Assembly (NCBI GenBank): GCA_002710765.1
Contig: PALK01000058.1
Location: 1-13,917 of the forward strand
DNA: 13,917 bases
Origin: Rickettsiales bacterium
GTDB lineage: Bacteria; Pseudomonadota; Alphaproteobacteria; Methylaequorales; Methylaequoraceae
Direction of reading: 5' to 3'
The notes below the pieces were generated by a model, which did no database searches, was not told the DNA's origin, and saw only the letters and a list, made by a program, of their open reading frames with translations. A program made the position numbers and the translations under genes. This document shows, in pieces, positions 1,619 to 13,917 of the stretch. Within the stretch, counting starts at the first letter, position 1, and each line of letters opens with the position of its first letter.

Positions 1619-1846
1619 ATGTTTACTTTTGGATCCAACCAAGATGCTGCGCCGAAAGAGGCCCCGTCTAAACCGGCGGCAGCAAACTGGACCCAACTCG
1701 TTCAAATCGACGAACCACCGCAAAAGATTGAAAAGACTTCCGTGTACGATTGGTGCAATACCGTAGTATCCAACCTGCACGACGAAGACGCGAAAGAGCT
1801 TGTGAAAGCTCTTGTTTTCCTTACCACCCGGTCCACTGAACTCTAA
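1619..1846 (+). CDS. Hypothetical 75-aa protein
   Basis: 75 aa with ATG at 1619 and TAA at 1844-1846. The first 35 residues are rich in Pro, Ala and Lys and likely disordered. The last 35 (from VYDWCNTVV to the end) look helical, with acidic and hydrophobic residues alternating. There is no signal peptide, membrane segment or known motif. Its stop codon overlaps the stop codon of the converging gene (1843-3033), which fits tight viral packing. Promoter and spacing support it as a real gene; no function can be assigned. Confidence 0.65.
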   Translation: MFTFGSNQDAAPKEAPSKPAAANWTQLVQIDEPPQKIEKTSVYDWCNTVVSNLHDEDAKELVKALVFLTTRSTEL

Positions 1847-3033
1847 TGCAACGCAGAGTCTAGCATGCTACCATATTGATTTCTCAGATTCACGGTAGTG
1901 GCCTCGCAATTGCGCACGAAAGCCTCCGCCTTTTCTTTTGTGTTTAAATACTTGTTGAGAACCTCTCGAATATGATTCATGGTTTTTGTCAAAAAGTTTT
2001 GCTGTGTGGGAGATGACGAATCTTCATAAAACGACCAAAGACACTTCATAAACTGTTCACAAGAGCTGGGATGAGGCAACAAAAAGCCAATATTGGCAAA
2101 CTTGGGTATAACTTGAGCCCCGTGAATTTTCACTCCGCGGCCAGTGGAGTAGAGAAAACTGACAGCAAACGATAGAAAACCCTTGAACAGAATTTGTTCG
2201 GTGTCTAGAAAGTTACAGCATTTGTAAAAAGCCACTATGAGCGGGCAAATATTTTGAACGACGGCGGGTGCGTCTTGCGCCCTGACGACCGTTTCATAAG
2301 TGCAATTACTGAACCACCCCATATCGATGGCTATTGTGGATAGTTGGTGGACAAAACACGGTTTGTTTTCTCGCTTGCAGCGTTTTATGTATTGCTGCGT
2401 TTTGTTCAGGATCTGGCGGTATTTTGCGCGTCTTGTATTATAAAACAATTCTTGGCGCAGCGTTGAAAACAAGCAGTCCACGACGCATCTCTGCGCGGAC
2501 TGCATCATTTTCAAATCAACGGTGTTGTGGAGCAGCCCTACTTGCCTAGAGTCGTTTGAATTTATGATCAAACCAGAAGCCCCTGGGTCAGGCAGCCTTG
2601 TTTTGCGTGGAGCAAAGGCCCCTTTCTTCTTTTCCCTCCAATCATACTCCCTTGTGATCTGAACCACGCGTCCGCTTATTCGACACACTTTGTTGCCGTT
2701 CTGGTTTTCTACTAACAAGCCGTTTTCTCCGCTGTTGCAATGATTGCAACTGCACAAATGCGTGTGCCCGCGTTTACACACATAAATGCAGCTGTAAGAA
2801 CGCCCTTCTAACTTCTCATACGACCCCTTTGGCCACGGCGGGCGCACCATTTTCCACGCCAAGCGCTCCTCGCCCGTGGCGTTGTGTTTCCACACCTGGA
2901 TCGGGATTGTGGCGCTGTGTCCACAAGTCTCGGGCGAACACGGTTCCCTTGTGTGCGCGGCCCCGTTCATAGAGTACCAGTCTGCGATCCAGGCGTACAC
3001 CAACGCGTCGTCTTTGGGGTCGATGATGGACAT
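1843..3033 (-). CDS. Cys/His-rich protein, possible viral transcription factor
   Basis: 396 aa from the ATG at 3033; the frame continues 6 codons further only to a TTG. Residues 82-121 carry a dense Cys/His cluster: Cys82, Cys86, His90, His92, Cys94, Cys96, His98, Cys99, then about 17 residues later VCRISGRVV (116-124). The layout, a metal-binding cluster followed by xxGNKVCxxSGRVV, resembles the N-terminal ribbon of TFIIB (ICPECGLVV), but the last Cys is Ser here, so it is not a standard ribbon. From memory, similar cluster-plus-VCxxSG proteins occur in large DNA viruses of protists; I cannot name the family. Residues 165-396 look mostly helical, with a hydrophobic helix at 283-296 followed by GVKIHGAQVIP. 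A role in transcription is inferred from the ribbon likeness and the nearby TBP. It converges on the 75-aa gene with overlapping stops. Confidence 0.8.
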   Translation of the reverse strand: MSIIDPKDDALVYAWIADWYSMNGAAHTREPCSPETCGHSATIPIQVWKHNATGEERLAWKMVRPPWPKGSYEKLEGRSYSCIYVCKRGHTHLCSCNHCNSGENGLLVENQNGNKVCRISGRVVQITREYDWREKKKGAFAPRKTRLPDPGASGLIINSNDSRQVGLLHNTVDLKMMQSAQRCVVDCLFSTLRQELFYNTRRAKYRQILNKTQQYIKRCKRENKPCFVHQLSTIAIDMGWFSNCTYETVVRAQDAPAVVQNICPLIVAFYKCCNFLDTEQILFKGFLSFAVSFLYSTGRGVKIHGAQVIPKFANIGFLLPHPSSCEQFMKCLWSFYEDSSSPTQQNFLTKTMNHIREVLNKYLNTKEKAEAFVRNCEATTVNLRNQYGSMLDSALH

Positions 3034-3171: not shown

Positions 3172-3849
3172 ATGTCCAGTCTTCTCTTCGACTGCGACTC
3201 TCGACCACAGTGGTCCGAACCCTCCGATAACCAATGCGAGGGTTTCTTTCCGGGTGGCATGAGCCCCTTCACACCGTTTAAAGAACTCGGCGGGGCTGCT
3301 GCGGCGGGGGAGCACCCCCGTGCCATCCAGCTGGGTCCGCGGGGTCCCGTGCCCACAATGGATTCCGATACTGCAATATCGCTCCTGAGTATTTTGCCCG
3401 CGTCGTCGGCAGGCACCCCAATGGGCACCCCAATGGGCACCCCAATGGGCACCCCAATGGGCACCCCAATGGGCACCCCAAAATCAATGCCTGTCGCATC
3501 TCCAAATTGGGGTCAGGGGTTTTTAGGTCCGACGTCCCCCGAACCTTTGCACCTCAACCCCTCGCATAGCCGTGCAGCTTTTCTTCCGCCGGAATTTTAT
3601 CTTGACGGCGCGTTGGCGGCCCCCGACCCTGCCCAACAAACACCCCCCTCTGCGATGAGTCGCGAGCCAAGCCACAAGCGGAGCAGATCTCCTTTGACCA
3701 AACAGGGTCACTTTCTTAACGCGTCTAGTTTTTCGTTGCCACACCGCGCACAGCCTTACATTGAATGCAACGCCTCTGAAGCAGCGGTACAAGCCTTGGG
3801 GCTTCTGGAAGAAGAAATAACACAAAAGCTGGGGGTTATTTCAATTTAG
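3172..3849 (+). CDS. Pro/Ser-rich protein with GTPM repeats
   Basis: 225 aa with ATG at 3172. The protein is low-complexity and probably mostly disordered. Residues 81-104 are six Gly-Thr-Pro-Met/Lys repeats encoded by a 12-bp DNA tandem repeat. Many Ser/Thr-Pro pairs (SPFTPF, TSPEP, the GTPM run, SPLT) could be targets of proline-directed kinases. A basic HKRSRSP segment (about 164-170) could act as a nuclear signal. The C-terminal 30 residues (EAAVQALGLLEEEITQKLGV) look like an amphipathic helix that may bind a partner. No family is recognised. It ends two bases before the stop of the converging membrane-protein gene. It could be a regulatory or tegument-like protein; unproven. Confidence 0.78.
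   Translation: MSSLLFDCDSRPQWSEPSDNQCEGFFPGGMSPFTPFKELGGAAAAGEHPRAIQLGPRGPVPTMDSDTAISLLSILPASSAGTPMGTPMGTPMGTPMGTPMGTPKSMPVASPNWGQGFLGPTSPEPLHLNPSHSRAAFLPPEFYLDGALAAPDPAQQTPPSAMSREPSHKRSRSPLTKQGHFLNASSFSLPHRAQPYIECNASEAAVQALGLLEEEITQKLGVISI
3412..3483 (+). repeat. 12-bp tandem repeat (GTPM), six units
   Basis: GGCACCCCAATG is repeated five times without change (3412-3471), with a sixth unit ending AAA (3472-3483). Each unit encodes Gly-Thr-Pro-Met in frame. Identical units indicate recent slippage or expansion, so copy number may vary between isolates. Confidence 0.95.
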
Positions 3850-4224: not shown

Positions 4225-5004
4225 ATGACTAAGAGATTGCGCGAGAATGAAAACCCGGACCTCTTTGCTCGTTCACAGACCAAGAAGCGCAGAAGTATCA
4301 GTACTGTTCCAGAAGACGGCGCGGACACAAGCACGTCGCTGCCATTACCAGAGAAAATGCCCCAACCTATCATCTCAAACGTCGTCTCCACTTTTAAGAG
4401 CAGCAACGGAGAGCGCAAACTGAATTTGCTCCGCTTCTCACAGGTTTATGGTTTTGAGTTCCAACCATCGCGGTTTGCAGCGTGTTCAATAAGAATACGT
4501 GATGTCAAAAGCCAGGCAAGAAGCACCGCGCTCGCTTTTACAAGCGGTAAGTTCGTAATCACCGGCTGTCGCAGCGAACAAGAAAGTCTTCTGTGCAGTC
4601 GGCGCTACATCTACATGCTGAACCGACTCGGCGAAAAACTCAGCTTTCGAGGGTTTGTAACCCAAAACATCGTATCAAGTGTCAATATTGGCCACCCGCT
4701 GCAGCTTCACTTGATGCAGAGAGACAACACGTGTGAGATGGCATGGGAACAAAGAAAGTTTCCAGGGCTTGTTTGGAGAGACCAACAGAGCAAGCTTGTT
4801 CTTCTTTGCTTTAGAAGTGGTCGCATCGTGATCACCGGAGCCAAGTCCAGAAAACAGATTGACCTGCAGTGGCCCAGGCTGTTTAAAATCATCTGGGCTT
4901 ACATTGACACCGAAGAGTCAGCAACAAAATGCAGCAGAGACTACGCCGCAAAACTGCGGAGAGACGAAGAAAGGCAACCCTTCGAACTCGAAAGTATGTT
5001 CTAA
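4225..5004 (+). CDS. TATA-box-binding protein (TBP)
   Basis: 259 aa from the ATG at 4225; upstream the frame opens only through a TTG. Residues 50-230 form the two-repeat saddle of TBP. All four DNA-kinking phenylalanines are present: Phe84 (PSRFAA), Phe105 (ALAFTSGK), Phe179 (KFPGL) and Phe196 (LLCFRSGR). So are the two minor-groove asparagines, Asn52 (SNVVST) and Asn148 (QNIVSS), and the signatures FTSGKFVITG and FRSGRIVITGAKS. A polar N-terminal extension of about 48 residues contains KKRR (20-23), a likely nuclear signal. The C-terminal 30 residues are charged and extend beyond the usual core. TBP bends TATA DNA and nucleates transcription initiation. Several large DNA viruses encode divergent TBPs; this one probably directs transcription from the viral TATA-like promoters seen here. 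The spacers to both neighbours are short. Confidence 0.93.
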   Translation: MTKRLRENENPDLFARSQTKKRRSISTVPEDGADTSTSLPLPEKMPQPIISNVVSTFKSSNGERKLNLLRFSQVYGFEFQPSRFAACSIRIRDVKSQARSTALAFTSGKFVITGCRSEQESLLCSRRYIYMLNRLGEKLSFRGFVTQNIVSSVNIGHPLQLHLMQRDNTCEMAWEQRKFPGLVWRDQQSKLVLLCFRSGRIVITGAKSRKQIDLQWPRLFKIIWAYIDTEESATKCSRDYAAKLRRDEERQPFELESMF

Positions 5005-7651: not shown

Positions 7652-10516
7652 TTACATTCGCAGCGTTCCGTACTTGTCCGCGCCCTCCAGCCGCATTTGC
7701 TGGAGCCTCTCCCACAACTTTCTTCTCTGCCTCTTCCTGGCGGATGCTGCGTCACTCTCACCGTCGTCGTCTTTGTCCATAGACATCAGGGGTGAATCCG
7801 ACATCTCCTCTTCTTCGGAATCAGATCGACCGCGCTTGTTGCTTGGCCTCTTCTTACTTTTGCGGGGGGGCTGAGGAGGTGCGGCTGCAGCTGCCGACGA
7901 GCTGGAAGAGCTGGAGCTCCAGGCAGCCTGAGCCGATCTTGCTATTATGGCTGCTGGGCTCCAATTTTTCCAATCGGTCCAGGGTACATAAATGTCCCAC
8001 AGCCTACCTTTCGTAAGAGCCCCATCAGCAAGCGTATCTCGCCACCCAGGTTCTTTCTTCTCCAATTCGTCCCGCAACCCCAAGTACAACGCAGTAATGT
8101 CATCGCTCAGCTCACCGTCTTTCATTCCATTCTCAATTTTTAGAATTCGCATTAGTTTAGATTTCTTAAACCAAGGCTTTCCCTCACCATCCCAATCCAC
8201 TGTGCGCTTCCTCAAACGGTGGTGCGGGTGCCATAACGGCAAGTTGGATTCCATCACTTTAATTAAATCATCTTCAGGCACATCTAGGAGTCTTCTACCG
8301 GGAGGCACATTGAGCATAGATAATTCCTTCTCACTTTCCAAATCGTAAAATTTTTTGGTGCCGTACCGCAATCTGCGTGTAATGCCATAAATCTTTGGAG
8401 CCGAAGAGGCACTAATATCGCGTCGGAGTTGAACCACATCATCTTTTTCAAAATAAAAGTCAGTCCAAGCCTTAGCCGCAGCAGCCGAGGCTGAGCTGGA
8501 AGAGCTGGAAGAGCTGGAAGAGCTGGAAGAGCTGGAAGAGCTGGAAGAGCTGGAAGAGCCGTCGCCCATGTCCTCGTCTACGACCTTCACCCAGGGCTCG
8601 AATTTATCCATGCCGGTTTTCCCGGGATCGAATTGATTAAGTTGACCATACTCATTCTTGCTTAGATATTCTTCCCGTTCTTTGCTTATTTGATTTTTGG
8701 CATAAATTTTTACTTCCGACTTACCCCCCCAAGAGTTATCCCCCCAAGACTTTACAACATATTCACCATCACTATCTCTTTCGATTGGTAGTTCAAAAGA
8801 TTTGTTCTTCGCGACCATGGTTACCTTGCCGTCTCTTAATTTAATTACTTTACAAATGGCACCAAAGAAGCTGCCGTGGTAATACTTTCCCACCTCGAAT
8901 TTTGGGAGTGTCGCCGCCGGTGCCGCAGCACCCGACGAGCTGGAAGAGCTGGAGGATGCCGCCGGTGCGGCAGCTGCTCCTCCGCCGCCCATGTCCTCGT
9001 CCTCCGAGTCGGAGATCGGAATGACTTCTTTGGCAGCACCCCCTGTGCCTCCGCCTGCTCCTCCGCCGCCCTCGTCCTCCGAGTCGGAAATCTCAATGGC
9101 GTTTTTAGCACCCTCTGCAAATAGCTGATCAAAGGTCTTCTCTCCTACTTCCTCCACCCCGTCGTCCTCCAGGGTTGGTGCGGCGTAGAGTTGGTAACCT
9201 CTGTAGAAGGCCCTGATGCCGTTATCGAATTGCACCGTGTAAGTACCACCCGCACCCGTCCGAACCTGAGTGATTTGACCTACCATATTTGCTCGTGCCG
9301 CGTATTCGGAAGCATACTTCTCAGCATGACCGTTGCTAAATGGTTTTGGGTGTTGTCCGATAAGGGGAGATATTTTATTAGGGAGCGGCAGTTTCAATCG
9401 TGCTATTTTCACACGATCGCCGATCTTGAAAGAGGGGCGCACGGCTACAAGACGTTTTGGTACCCATATCCATGCCGCGATTGTTACCAACCCGTCTCTC
9501 ATATTTTGCGTTGCCACCCTTACAACAGCCTGTCCGCGTTTCACTGTGGCTTTGTAAACGGTTCCAATTTGTCCTGACTCCAGTTTAAGGATGGTGCCTC
9601 TCCACACGCTCCTTCCGTTTCTGTCTCGGACGGGATAACCCACGCCCCGATGCCGAGGTGCAAGGGGGTCGCCCTCCTCCCATCTTTGGCGATAAGGAGA
9701 CAGCGGCTGTGGCGCGGCGGCTGCTGCCGGTGCTGCTGCTGCCGGTGCGGATGGTGCCGCGGCTGCTGCTGCCGAGCTGGAGGAGCTGGAGGAAGCCGGT
9801 GCGGCTGCTGCTGGAGCTGTGGCGGCGAGTATGTCTCCGTCCGAAGGATTATCCAGCGAAAAAAACACATACTCACGTTTGTTTTCAATTTGAACCAATC
9901 TTCGGAATTGCCTGACCCGCCCTCGATTTCTTCTCTCAAGCCATACAAATATTCCCTCGCGGCTGGTGATCCGGCTGGTGATCTTATACCATTTCCCGTC
10001 GGCACTTTTGTAAAACTTACCGCTCTCGAATCTTTCCCATTCGGGTGCGGCTGCTGCTGCTGCCGGTGCTGGAGCTGCCGCGGCTGCTGGAGCTGCTGCC
10101 GAGCTGGAGGAACTGGAGGAAGCCGGAGCTGGTGCTGCTGGAGCTGCTGCGGGTGGTACAAAAGATACGTGGGGTGGCGGATTACCAACAGCAGATGCGT
10201 ATAATTTAACTGGCACGCCCCCCTGAAAATACATAATCGCGTACTCAACCCCATTTTCGGTGTAAACCCCTTTTTGCTCCGCGAACGACAAATCCTCGAG
10301 GATCTCAAAATCCTGGTGAAGGAATTTTATCAGTGCTCCTGTGCGGCTGGTGACCCGATACCATTTCCCGTTGACCCAATTTTTGTAAGATTTACCCACC
10401 TCGAATTTTGAACCAGCCGCCGCCTCCTCCCTTTTCTTTCTTGCCGCGGCAATTTTACGCTCAATCTCCGCCTGTTGTCGGAGGAGCTCCTCCAAATCTT
10501 CGCCGCCCTGAGACAT
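7652..10516 (-). CDS. Capped multidomain protein with SH3-like modules and SIMs
   Basis: 954 aa with ATG at 10516. Order: N-terminal cap (1-33, MSQGG plus coiled coil with LLRQQAEIERKIAA); module A (about 36-107, FEVGKSYKNW, GKWYRVTSR); Ala/Pro/Ser linker; module B (about 161-232, FESGKFYK, GKWYKITSR); linker; a beta-rich SH3/KOW-like region (about 300-445, FKIGDRVKI, GQITQV, YTVQFDNG); two SUMO-interaction-like motifs (about 473-508); Ser linker; module C (about 538-608, FEVGKYYHG); a run of over 20 Ser (about 654-676); a unique domain (about 688-867, with FEKDDVVQL); basic and acidic patches; and a C-terminal tag (about 926-954). The caps match the neighbouring LRR genes. It is probably a cytoplasmic or nuclear scaffold or virion protein; there is no signal peptide or membrane segment. 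The function is unknown. Confidence 0.88.
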   Translation of the reverse strand: MSQGGEDLEELLRQQAEIERKIAAARKKREEAAAGSKFEVGKSYKNWVNGKWYRVTSRTGALIKFLHQDFEILEDLSFAEQKGVYTENGVEYAIMYFQGGVPVKLYASAVGNPPPHVSFVPPAAAPAAPAPASSSSSSSAAAPAAAAAPAPAAAAAAPEWERFESGKFYKSADGKWYKITSRITSREGIFVWLERRNRGRVRQFRRLVQIENKREYVFFSLDNPSDGDILAATAPAAAAPASSSSSSSAAAAAAPSAPAAAAPAAAAAPQPLSPYRQRWEEGDPLAPRHRGVGYPVRDRNGRSVWRGTILKLESGQIGTVYKATVKRGQAVVRVATQNMRDGLVTIAAWIWVPKRLVAVRPSFKIGDRVKIARLKLPLPNKISPLIGQHPKPFSNGHAEKYASEYAARANMVGQITQVRTGAGGTYTVQFDNGIRAFYRGYQLYAAPTLEDDGVEEVGEKTFDQLFAEGAKNAIEISDSEDEGGGGAGGGTGGAAKEVIPISDSEDEDMGGGGAAAAPAASSSSSSSSGAAAPAATLPKFEVGKYYHGSFFGAICKVIKLRDGKVTMVAKNKSFELPIERDSDGEYVVKSWGDNSWGGKSEVKIYAKNQISKEREEYLSKNEYGQLNQFDPGKTGMDKFEPWVKVVDEDMGDGSSSSSSSSSSSSSSSSSSSSSSASAAAAKAWTDFYFEKDDVVQLRRDISASSAPKIYGITRRLRYGTKKFYDLESEKELSMLNVPPGRRLLDVPEDDLIKVMESNLPLWHPHHRLRKRTVDWDGEGKPWFKKSKLMRILKIENGMKDGELSDDITALYLGLRDELEKKEPGWRDTLADGALTKGRLWDIYVPWTDWKNWSPAAIIARSAQAAWSSSSSSSSAAAAAPPQPPRKSKKRPSNKRGRSDSEEEEMSDSPLMSMDKDDDGESDAASARKRQRRKLWERLQQMRLEGADKYGTLRM
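8493..8558 (-). repeat. 9-bp tandem repeat encoding polyserine
   Basis: GAGCTGGAA repeats about seven times on the plus strand, read on the minus strand as TTCCAGCTC in a Ser frame (AGC-TCT-TCC). Shorter relatives of the same unit occur near 7901-7920, 8937-8955, 9774-9795 and 10103-10125, each in a linker. The linkers therefore look seeded from one repeat. Confidence 0.88.
8990..9097 (-). other. Two SUMO-interaction-like motifs
   Basis: Within the 954-aa protein, IEISDSEDE (9071-9097) and VIPISDSEDED (8993-9025) each pair a short Ile/Val core with Ser-Asp-Ser and an acidic tail, the pattern of phospho-regulated SUMO-interaction motifs. The serines sit in casein-kinase-2-like acidic contexts. 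The two copies share nearly identical DNA, so one probably arose by duplication. Confidence 0.5.
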
Positions 10517-10555
10517 GGTTTTCTCAGAGATCTTTACCAGTACAATGAGTGAGGT

Positions 10556-10564
10556 CTATTATAG
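10556..10564 (-). promoter_or_regulatory. Promoter of 954-aa capped gene
   Basis: CTATAATAG on the minus strand, about 40 nt before the ATG at 10516, preceded by a run of A/T. The same element and leader recur before the next family member (12866-12874), so it is a conserved promoter. Confidence 0.5.
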
Positions 10565-10600
10565 TAAAAAAAAAATCAATTCTTACAGGTCTTACAGGTC

Positions 10601-12826
<2,226 letters not shown>

Positions 12827-12865
12827 GATTTTCTCAGAGATCATTACCAGTACAATGAGTGAGGT

Positions 12866-12874
12866 CTATTATAG
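12866..12874 (-). promoter_or_regulatory. Promoter of LRR gene
   Basis: CTATAATAG on the minus strand, about 40 nt before the ATG at 12826, in a leader nearly identical to that of the 954-aa gene. The two differ by a T/A change beside GAGATC and by one base in the A run. Confidence 0.5.
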
Positions 12875-12911
12875 TAAAAAAAAAAATCAATTCTTACAGG
12901 TCTTACAGGTC

Positions 12912-13917
12912 TTACAGTCGCAGCGCCCCGTACTTGTCGGCGCCCTCCAGCCGCATTTGCTGGAGCTTCTTCTCCCACAACCGCATTCTGCGTCGCTTGG
13001 CGGATGCTGCGGCACCCTCGTCGTCGTCTTTGTCGTCTTCGAACGCTCGCTTGTTGCCGCCAGCGCCCATGTCCTCGTCGTCGTCGCTGTCGTCCTCGAA
13101 GAATTCTACTCGTACGTTGCTCCCAAAAGCAGAATCGCCCAGCTGCGTGTTTTCGGACAAACGCACCGAGGTGAGCCCGCTGCACCATTGGAATGCACGT
13201 TTTCCGATGCTGCTCAACCCTTCTTCCGGAAAGGTCACCGAGGTGAGCCCGGTGCACCTGTAGAATGCTTCCCCTCCGATGCTGGTCAACCCTTCCGGAA
13301 AGGTCACCGAGGTCAGCCCGCTGCACCCTTGGAATGCATTCCATCTGATGCTGGTCAACCCTTCCGGAAAGGTCACCGAGGTCAGCCCGGTGCACCTCAA
13401 GAATGCACTCCATCCGATGCTGCTCAACCCTTCCGGAAAGGCCACCGAGGTGAGCCCGGTGCACTCATAGAATGCATACCCTCCGATGCTGGTCAACCCT
13501 TCCGGAAACCTTACCGAGGTGAGCCCGCTGCAGTTACCGAATGCATTGTCTCCGATGCTGGTCAACCTATCCGGAAAGGTCACCGCGGTAAGCCCGGCGC
13601 ACCATTGGAATGCCCAGTCTCCGATGCTGGTCAACCCTTCCGGAAAGGTCACCGAGGTGAGCCCACTACACTCACAGAATGCACCGTTTCCGATGCTGGT
13701 CAACCCTTCCGGAAAGGTCACCGAGGTAAGCCCACGACACTCATAGAATGCCCACTCTCCGATGCTAGCCAACCCTTCCGGAAAGGTCACCGAGGTGAGC
13801 CCGGTGCACTCATAGAATGCCCGCGTTCCGATGTGGGTCAACCCTTCCGGAAAGGTCACCGAGGTCAGCCCGCTGCACCTAGAGAATGCACTCGCCCCGA
13901 TGCTGGTCAACCCTTCC
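12912..13917 (-). CDS. Capped BspA-like LRR protein, 5' end outside window
   Basis: Partial: the frame runs off the right edge without a convincing start, so only the C-terminal 334 or so residues are visible. These are about 11 BspA-type LRR units of 23 residues, then an acidic segment (FEDDSDDDEDMGAGGNKR) and the family tag (KRRRMRLW, RLEGADKYGALRL). One unit has an extra Glu (PEEGL), making it 24 residues. It is very similar to the LRR gene at 10601-12826 and shares its 3' end, triple stop and downstream leader. An N-terminal MSQGG cap is expected outside the window. Cellular role as for its paralogue: a protein-binding scaffold of unknown target. Confidence 0.9.
   Translation of the reverse strand, partial: EGLTSIGASAFSRCSGLTSVTFPEGLTHIGTRAFYECTGLTSVTFPEGLASIGEWAFYECRGLTSVTFPEGLTSIGNGAFCECSGLTSVTFPEGLTSIGDWAFQWCAGLTAVTFPDRLTSIGDNAFGNCSGLTSVRFPEGLTSIGGYAFYECTGLTSVAFPEGLSSIGWSAFLRCTGLTSVTFPEGLTSIRWNAFQGCSGLTSVTFPEGLTSIGGEAFYRCTGLTSVTFPEEGLSSIGKRAFQWCSGLTSVRLSENTQLGDSAFGSNVRVEFFEDDSDDDEDMGAGGNKRAFEDDKDDDEGAAASAKRRRMRLWEKKLQQMRLEGADKYGALRL
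13110..13917 (-). repeat. 69-bp tandem repeats (second LRR array)
   Basis: About 11 more units of the same 69-bp repeat, continuing past the window edge. One unit carries a 3-bp insertion near 13224. Sharing the same framework as the 10831-12262 array makes recombination between the two genes likely. Confidence 0.9.

What the first reader, a model, noticed from the sequence alone, without database searches (positions are those of the whole stretch)
7652..13917. Tandem family of proteins with fixed end caps and swapped middles
Three adjacent minus-strand genes end in the same C-terminal tag (basic patch, LW, then QMRLEGADKYG). The two complete genes also begin with the same MSQGG coiled-coil cap. 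Between the caps one carries SH3-like modules with Ala/Ser linkers and SUMO-interaction-like motifs, while the others carry BspA LRR arrays. Constant ends around unrelated middles suggest the caps do a shared job, such as virion loading, assembly on a common scaffold or nuclear import, while the middles diversify. I know of no described viral system of this form.
Basis: partly seen in the sequence, partly recalled or inferred. Interest (0 to 1): 0.85.

Follow-up and report, generated by a model that had tools for sequence, protein, structure and literature searches.

The report
Viral repeat genes sharing one tail
A piece of DNA, probably from a large virus of a single-celled eukaryote, carries neighbouring genes that share one protein tail; their shared front end is most simply a by-product of a recent DNA duplication, while the tail is older and may do a real job.

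Summary
Genes A (954 aa), B (741 aa) and C (334 aa, cut by the contig end) share a C-terminal tail; A and B share a 24-codon N-cap; B and C carry BspA LRR arrays, A does not. The N-cap lies in a DNA block that also covers the 84-85 bp spacer and the upstream gene's end (89% identical over 352 bp). The cap has changed no less than the spacer, shows no deficit of amino-acid changes, and stops matching at codon 24. One tandem duplication joining A's first codons to an LRR gene explains it; the nearest relative, P0015, has LRR module and tail but no cap. The tail is older and kept in P0015, so it is the candidate for a shared job (nuclear or particle targeting, inferred). SH3 and F-box readings were not confirmed. 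Unasked: four codons per LRR unit are hypervariable in a framework nearly identical at silent sites; the point estimate exceeds all eight control arrays, with overlapping intervals for some. The source is a misbinned contig with a TATA-binding protein, likely viral, unproven.

The parts
7652..10516 (-). Gene A, 954 aa: N-cap, four F-x-x-G-(K/D) modules (SH3-like by eye), Ala/Ser/Pro linkers, two SUMO-interaction-like strings, basic region, shared tail
   Evidence: ORF; no Pfam family at E 0.1; modules at residues 38, 163, 363, 540
10601..12826 (-). Gene B, 741 aa from the MSQGG start (ORF open from 12844): N-cap, F-box-like stretch by eye, conserved pre-LRR domain, about 20 LRRs, acidic run, shared tail
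   Evidence: ORF; Pfam LRR_5 7.8e-192; relatives P0015-P0018
12912..13916 (-). Gene C, 3' part only (334 aa, cut by contig end): BspA LRR array, acidic run, shared tail
   Evidence: ORF open at 5' end; LRR_5 7.5e-99; tail matches P0015 at 71 of 79 aligned residues
10445..10516 (-). N-terminal cap of A (24 codons)
   Evidence: similarity to B stops at codon 24-25; 16 identical, 1 synonymous, 7 nonsynonymous codons
12755..12826 (-). N-terminal cap of B (24 codons)
   Evidence: as above
10517..10600 (-). B/A spacer, 84 bp: CCTGTAAGA repeat, T-run, TATA-like ACTATAATAG
   Evidence: 2 substitutions and 1 gap from the C/B spacer
12827..12911 (-). C/B spacer, 85 bp, near-identical to the B/A spacer
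7652..7756 (-). C-terminal tail of A (basic patch, LW, LQQMRLEGADKYGTLRM)
10601..10699 (-). C-terminal tail of B
12912..13010 (-). C-terminal tail of C
10892..12258 (-). LRR array of B, 69-bp units, 19.8 copies
   Evidence: tandem repeat score 1499; four hypervariable codons per unit
13164..13917 (-). LRR array of C, 69-bp units, 10.9 copies seen
   Evidence: tandem repeat score 870
12593..12700 (-). F-box-like stretch of B by eye (residues 43-78), kept in P0015
   Evidence: 26 invariant columns between B (46 aa) and P0015 (47 aa); no F-box hit
12269..12601 (-). conserved pre-LRR domain of B (about residues 76-186)
   Evidence: shared with P0015-P0018
8996..9022 (-). SUMO-interaction-like string IPISDSEDE in A
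   Evidence: pattern; motif recalled
9071..9097 (-). SUMO-interaction-like string IEISDSEDE in A
   Evidence: pattern; motif recalled
4225..5004 (+). TATA-binding protein (context: viral lineage)
   Evidence: Pfam TBP 1.7e-30; best PDB match a eukaryotic TBP, 8.5e-30
1843..3033 (-). 396-aa zinc-ribbon-like (by eye) protein of an unnamed family (context)
   Evidence: 14 clusters in the protein collection, its own included; 13 of them aligned

Best explanation
The locus is a small tandem family of repeat-protein genes, most likely in a large DNA virus of a single-celled eukaryote. Shown: the end of an LRR gene with the tail, the spacer after it, and the first 24 codons of the next gene exist in two near-identical copies. 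Inferred: one tandem duplication copied [LRR gene, spacer, first ~24 codons of A], and its junction joined A's start codon, promoter and cap in frame to the duplicated LRR gene, giving the order C-B-A. The N-cap is therefore a hitchhiker of promoter and start capture. The tail is an older shared element that I think directs otherwise unrelated proteins to one place: a basic patch next to acidic stretches suggests the nucleus or nucleus-assembled particles (inferred). The LRR arrays diversify at four exposed codons per unit and probably bind changing host proteins (inferred).
For: Junction C/B against B/A is 88.9% identical over 352 bp, running through upstream tail, spacer and downstream cap. 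The spacer has 2 substitutions and 1 gap, the cap 9 of 72 differences (Fisher p 0.024 for substitutions only, 0.067 with the gap counted), in 1 synonymous and 7 nonsynonymous codons, as expected without selection (77% nonsynonymous). Similarity ends abruptly at codon 24. P0015, a relative with B's F-box-like start, pre-LRR domain, LRRs and a C-like tail, has no cap; its first Met falls where B's homology begins. Tail: A against C 83.7% over 129 bp, A against B 81.0% over 121 bp, so probably older; core kept in A, B, C and P0015. LRR: codons 16, 17, 20, 21 have 2.9-3.2 bits of amino-acid entropy while codons 18 and 19 are GCA in 25 of 26 and TTC in 26 of 26 units; pN at those codons over framework pS is 3.06 (B) and 5.08 (C), against 1.11-2.21 in eight controls.
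Against: Gene C's start lies outside the window, so its predicted lack of a cap is unseen. P0015's start is a gene prediction whose DNA I could not read, and it is a single relative. Gene conversion between two capped genes would give much of the same pattern. Divergence differs along the duplicated block (spacer 2 of 84 substitutions, cap 9 of 72, LRR part lower still in identity), which one event without selection or conversion does not predict. The counts are small, and the cap/spacer difference is not significant once the gap is counted. Intervals of four of eight control arrays overlap that of B, and two overlap that of C. The tail function rests on composition alone; neither tail nor cap is significantly amphipathic. 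No virion hallmark gene was seen in the window.
Confidence: 0.55

Rival explanations
1. Both caps are functional modules under constraint (assembly or virion loading), and the middles are swapped between them.
For: Both complete genes carry both ends; the cap is predicted helical (residues 6-28 of B in the model, low confidence); the tail is shared by proteins with unrelated middles.
Against: The cap has changed no less than the non-coding spacer beside it and shows no deficit of nonsynonymous changes; the relative P0015 lacks the cap.
Confidence: 0.15
2. B and C are LRR/F-box substrate adaptors for the host SCF ubiquitin ligase, working like poxvirus ankyrin/F-box proteins, and A is a SUMO-binding partner.
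For: Residues 43-78 of B look like an F-box by eye and are kept in P0015 (26 invariant columns); LRRs are among the usual partners of F-boxes (passage of PMC9414399); A has two SUMO-interaction-like strings.
Against: No F-box match to B's N-terminus or P0015 in Pfam at E 10 (although HMMER's filters drop most matches above 0.1), none in the window in the bin-wide F-box search, none among PDB sequences; the model of this part is poor (mean pLDDT 41); 34 of 1000 shuffles give as many SIM-like strings.
Confidence: 0.2
3. The identical ends are kept alike by ongoing gene conversion (concerted evolution) within the array, whatever their function.
For: Patches of near-identity alternate with diverged stretches in the tails: one difference in a 38-nt core of A against C, many differences just upstream.
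Against: The sharp end of similarity at codon 24 and the position of P0015's start fit a duplication junction more directly.
Confidence: 0.3
4. The contig is eukaryotic nuclear DNA, not viral.
For: Eukaryote-like TBP; BspA LRRs occur in large numbers in some protists (PMC2843621); P0016-P0018 share the pre-LRR domain without the tail. Nothing related was found in IMG/VR.
Against: Twelve ORFs taken as genes cover 86% of the contig, on both strands, with gaps of 2-411 bp; the 396-aa family lies on metagenome contigs, one of 270,808 bp. No systematic intron search was made.
Confidence: 0.2

Closest known systems
Poxvirus ankyrin-repeat/F-box (PRANC) proteins
   Same: Viral protein family: a repeat array joined to a fixed end domain (PMC9414399, abstract and passages seen).
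   Different: LRRs, not ankyrins; here the shared end is a short basic tail, and no F-box was confirmed; one member has no repeats.
Trichomonas vaginalis BspA-like (TpLRR) family
   Same: Same LRR type; paralogues sharing short conserved C-terminal ends or cytoplasmic tails; suggested positive selection (PMC2843621, passages seen).
   Different: Cellular proteins, many inferred to sit at the surface; here a probably viral contig, and the tail also sits on a non-LRR protein. I did not test the window proteins for signal peptides or anchors.
BspA-type LRR proteins of haptophyte-infecting giant viruses
   Same: BspA LRR protein and TATA-box binding protein are both listed for these viruses (PMC11953307, passages seen).
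   Different: No tandem family with a shared tail in the three passages seen.
Mirusviruses (Mirusviricota)
   Same: TATA-binding protein is a core gene, 59% of genomes against 0% in Nucleocytoviricota (PMC10132985, passages); planktonic hosts; predicted nuclear phase (PMC12768974, abstract and passages).
   Different: No hallmark gene was seen in this 13.9-kb contig, so membership is open.

Membership tests
BspA-type LRR proteins (Pfam LRR_5) | Tandem 23-residue LRRs above the Pfam cut-off | tested here: met
   B 627.5 bits, C 326.9 bits, cut-off 27.7
BspA-type LRR proteins (Pfam LRR_5) | LRRs in gene A | tested here: not met
   0 families for A at E 0.1
F-box substrate adaptors (poxvirus ANKR/F-box kind) | F-box domain | tested here: not met
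   No F-box in Pfam scans of B's N-terminus and P0015, bin-wide PF00646 search has one hit, on another contig and below cut-off, none in PDB sequences; resemblance is by eye only
F-box substrate adaptors (poxvirus ANKR/F-box kind) | Binding to Skp1/Cullin-1 | not testable with these tools
   needs a binding assay
SH3-domain proteins (gene A) | SH3 profile above cut-off | tested here: not met
   best SH3_15 13.1 bits against 24
Mirusviricota | TATA-binding protein gene (core, not diagnostic) | tested here: met
   1.7e-30
Mirusviricota | HK97-fold capsid and herpesvirus-like morphogenesis module | tested here: inconclusive
   Not searched by its own profiles; none among the Pfam hits of the 10 window proteins; the contig is only 13.9 kb
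Nucleocytoviricota | NCLDV major capsid protein | tested here: inconclusive
   PF04451: no match in the bin at E 0.1, but the window may be the only contig of this source in it
Diversity-generating retroelement targets | Adenine-specific changes from a template repeat | tested here: not met
   Hypervariable codons vary at all three positions, including positions where the commonest base is G or T; no reverse transcriptase among the Pfam hits

The most novel reading that the evidence does not exclude
The tail is a portable address tag of an uncultured protist virus: a set of unrelated binding modules is sent to one compartment or into the particle by it, and new members arise when tandem duplication gives the promoter and start of one tagged gene to another, while the LRR members keep changing four exposed codons per unit on a homogenised framework, as in a receptor repertoire.
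Probability: 0.2. Interest if true: 0.7.

Novelty: new variant of a known kind. Interest (0 to 1): 0.42.

Why it matters
It separates two things that look alike in a sequence: ends that are the same because they were copied recently, and ends that are the same because they are needed. If the tail is an address tag, it gives a handle for listing the effectors of a poorly known virus group. The LRR arrays are a case of strong diversification at defined exposed positions, which would make virus-host recognition in a microbial eukaryote testable.

Tried and rejected
Relatives in public contigs: the tail pattern gave 0 matches in IMG/VR. Scans of IMG/VR with TBP, the 394-aa protein, the 402-aa protein, alignments A1 and A3 and gene A gave no confirmed relative, nor did genome contigs with A1 and A3 or 398 genomes drawn from the bin's phylum with A1 (only the window itself). 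These tools warn that records very near the window may be left out. An LRR DNA pattern gave 0 in IMG/VR. The 394-aa protein and P0007 gave no match in the phage collection. A search with A's last 75 residues gave none of 110 candidates at E 1; it did not return the window's own A and could not reach P0015 (412 aa, below its length limit), so it is a weak negative. The search that found P0015-P0018 (4 of 2825 candidates at E 10) did not return the window's own B either.

Rejected ideas: diversity-generating retroelement; viral lineage from the fold of the 402-aa protein (mean pLDDT 66.8; 0 BFVD matches at E 0.001); F-box by profile; a TATA-box signal before the genes (7 of 11 upstream stretches against 5.1 expected). 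The fold of B's N-terminus was too poor to search. Alignment A1 used 13 of the 14 proteins (P0006, a 293-aa piece, left out). Confidence was lowered from 0.60 to 0.55 after counting the spacer gap.
Full report
What is there. The window is the whole contig C58 of a low-quality bin (G000, 1.63 Mb, 61 contigs, 68% complete). It does not seem to belong to that bin: its GC is 52.5%, and the tetranucleotide profile of its first 10,500 bases correlates at 0.36 with the mean of 20 sampled contigs, 17 of which correlate above 0.9 with the mean of the others. BspA LRRs match at E 0.001 in only 3 of 200 genomes of the bin's phylum, the bin itself included. Twelve ORFs taken as genes cover 86% of the contig on both strands. 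One is a eukaryote-like TATA-binding protein; another is a 396-aa protein with 13 further clusters at 46-83% identity in the protein collection, one on a 270,808-bp contig (13 of the 14 aligned). None of this family was found in IMG/VR or in GTDB genomes. A TATA-binding protein is a core gene of mirusviruses (59% of genomes against 0% in Nucleocytoviricota, passages of PMC10132985; also PMC12768974), but a paper on haptophyte viruses lists TBP and BspA LRRs too (passages of PMC11953307). I call the source a large DNA virus of a single-celled eukaryote, likely but unproven.

The ends. Three adjacent genes share the C-terminal tail, and the two complete ones share an N-terminal cap. Comparing the two junctions C/B and B/A as DNA gives 88.9% identity over 352 bp, from the upstream gene's tail through the spacer into the downstream gene. 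The spacers differ by 2 substitutions and one gap, the caps by 9 of 72 nt. The difference is nominal (Fisher p 0.024 for substitutions, 0.067 with the gap); the point is that the cap is not better kept than the spacer. Its changed codons are 1 synonymous and 7 nonsynonymous, where 77% nonsynonymous is expected without selection, so there is no sign of constraint, on small numbers. Similarity between A and B then stops at codon 24 (10 of 12 nt identical in codons 21-24, 3 of 12 in codons 25-28).

A relative shows the other side of the junction. Protein P0015 is like B without the cap: it starts at the F-box-like stretch, has the pre-LRR domain, LRRs and a tail matching C at 71 of 79 aligned residues. 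Of the four relatives found, 1 of 4 has the tail and 0 of 4 have the cap. The simplest history is one tandem duplication of [LRR gene, spacer, first ~24 codons of A], whose junction made B. It predicts that gene C, whose start lies outside the window, has no cap. P0015's start is a prediction that I could not check in DNA.

The tail. A's tail is 83.7% (against C, 129 bp) and 81.0% (against B, 121 bp) identical as DNA, so this sharing is probably older than the cap duplication. The core LxxMRLEGADKYGxLR recurs in A, B, C and P0015, with one residue lost in P0015. Since A's middle is unrelated to the LRR genes, the tail is the element that could do a shared job. It has a basic patch beside acidic stretches, which resembles nuclear targeting signals (recalled, not tested). 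Gene conversion within the array could also keep tails alike.

The middles. B and C carry 69-bp LRR units (19.8 and 10.9 copies). Across 26 regular units (18 of B, 8 of C), codons 16, 17, 20 and 21 (the x positions of GxxAFxxC) have 2.9-3.2 bits of amino-acid entropy and vary at all three codon positions, while the codons between them are GCA in 25 of 26 and TTC in 26 of 26. I picked these four after seeing the entropies; codons 13 and 23, which vary less, were left out of both classes. There, pN at the four codons over framework pS is 3.06 (bootstrap 2.32-4.15) for B (18 units) and 5.08 (3.22-9.10) for C (9 units); eight control BspA arrays, seven from plasmid records and one from a phage record, gave 1.11-2.21. 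The eight were chosen from the 30 rows listed, out of 51 and 64 matching records; the other 22 were passed over, one of them (H1) on purpose. Bootstrap intervals of four controls (L082, L084, L085, L086) overlap that of B and two (L084, L085) overlap that of C; control framework sites are also nearer saturation. So the window arrays have the highest point estimates but are not a class apart, and excess change at these positions is a general trait of BspA arrays. The strand that should form the concave LRR face (LTSVTF) is nearly invariant; the variable codons should lie on the convex side (from general LRR knowledge, not modelled here).

Gene A and the F-box idea. A has four stretches starting F-x-x-G-(K/D) (residues 38, 163, 363, 540) that could be SH3-like, but none passes a Pfam cut-off. 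B's residues 43-78 look like an F-box to the eye and are conserved in P0015, but Pfam, a bin-wide F-box search and PDB sequences give no support, and the model was too poor to search (mean pLDDT 41). I keep this as a lead only.

How it compares. Fixed ends on repeat proteins are known in poxvirus ankyrin/F-box proteins (abstract and passages of PMC9414399), and conserved C-terminal ends on BspA paralogues in Trichomonas (passages of PMC2843621). The listings of nine paper searches named no paper on a viral family with this tail; I read passages of five papers, none in full, and subscription journals and preprints are mostly not held. I rate it a new variant of a known kind.

Noticed in passing
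window 10892-12258 and 13164-13917: LRR units have four hypervariable codons on a framework nearly identical at silent sites; point estimate of the ratio higher than in eight control arrays, intervals overlapping in some.
   Followed up: partly
window 10556-10604 and 12866-12915 (minus strand): The two spacers hold the only strings of the pattern GTAAG...pyrimidine-run...YAG that my scan found on either strand of the window; they resemble a tiny intron but could equally be a T-rich, TATA-containing promoter.
   Followed up: partly
window 1843-3033: Unnamed zinc-ribbon-like protein family with 14 clusters in the protein collection, no PDB match, no Pfam match over cut-off, no viral-fold match at E 0.001; a possible marker gene of this virus group.
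   Followed up: partly
window 4225-5004: Eukaryote-like TATA-binding protein on a probably viral contig.
   Followed up: partly
window 3412-3481: Perfect 12-bp tandem repeat GGCACCCCAATG, 5.8 copies, inside a 225-aa ORF.
   Followed up: no
L036 (G000:C57, whole contig) and L056 (G000:C27:1-5000): Further contigs of the bin with foreign composition; by eye C57 carries bacterial genes (transporters, sulfatase).
   Followed up: partly
P0016, P0017, P0018: Proteins with the same pre-LRR domain and LRRs but without cap or tail, possibly from hosts or other viruses.
   Followed up: no
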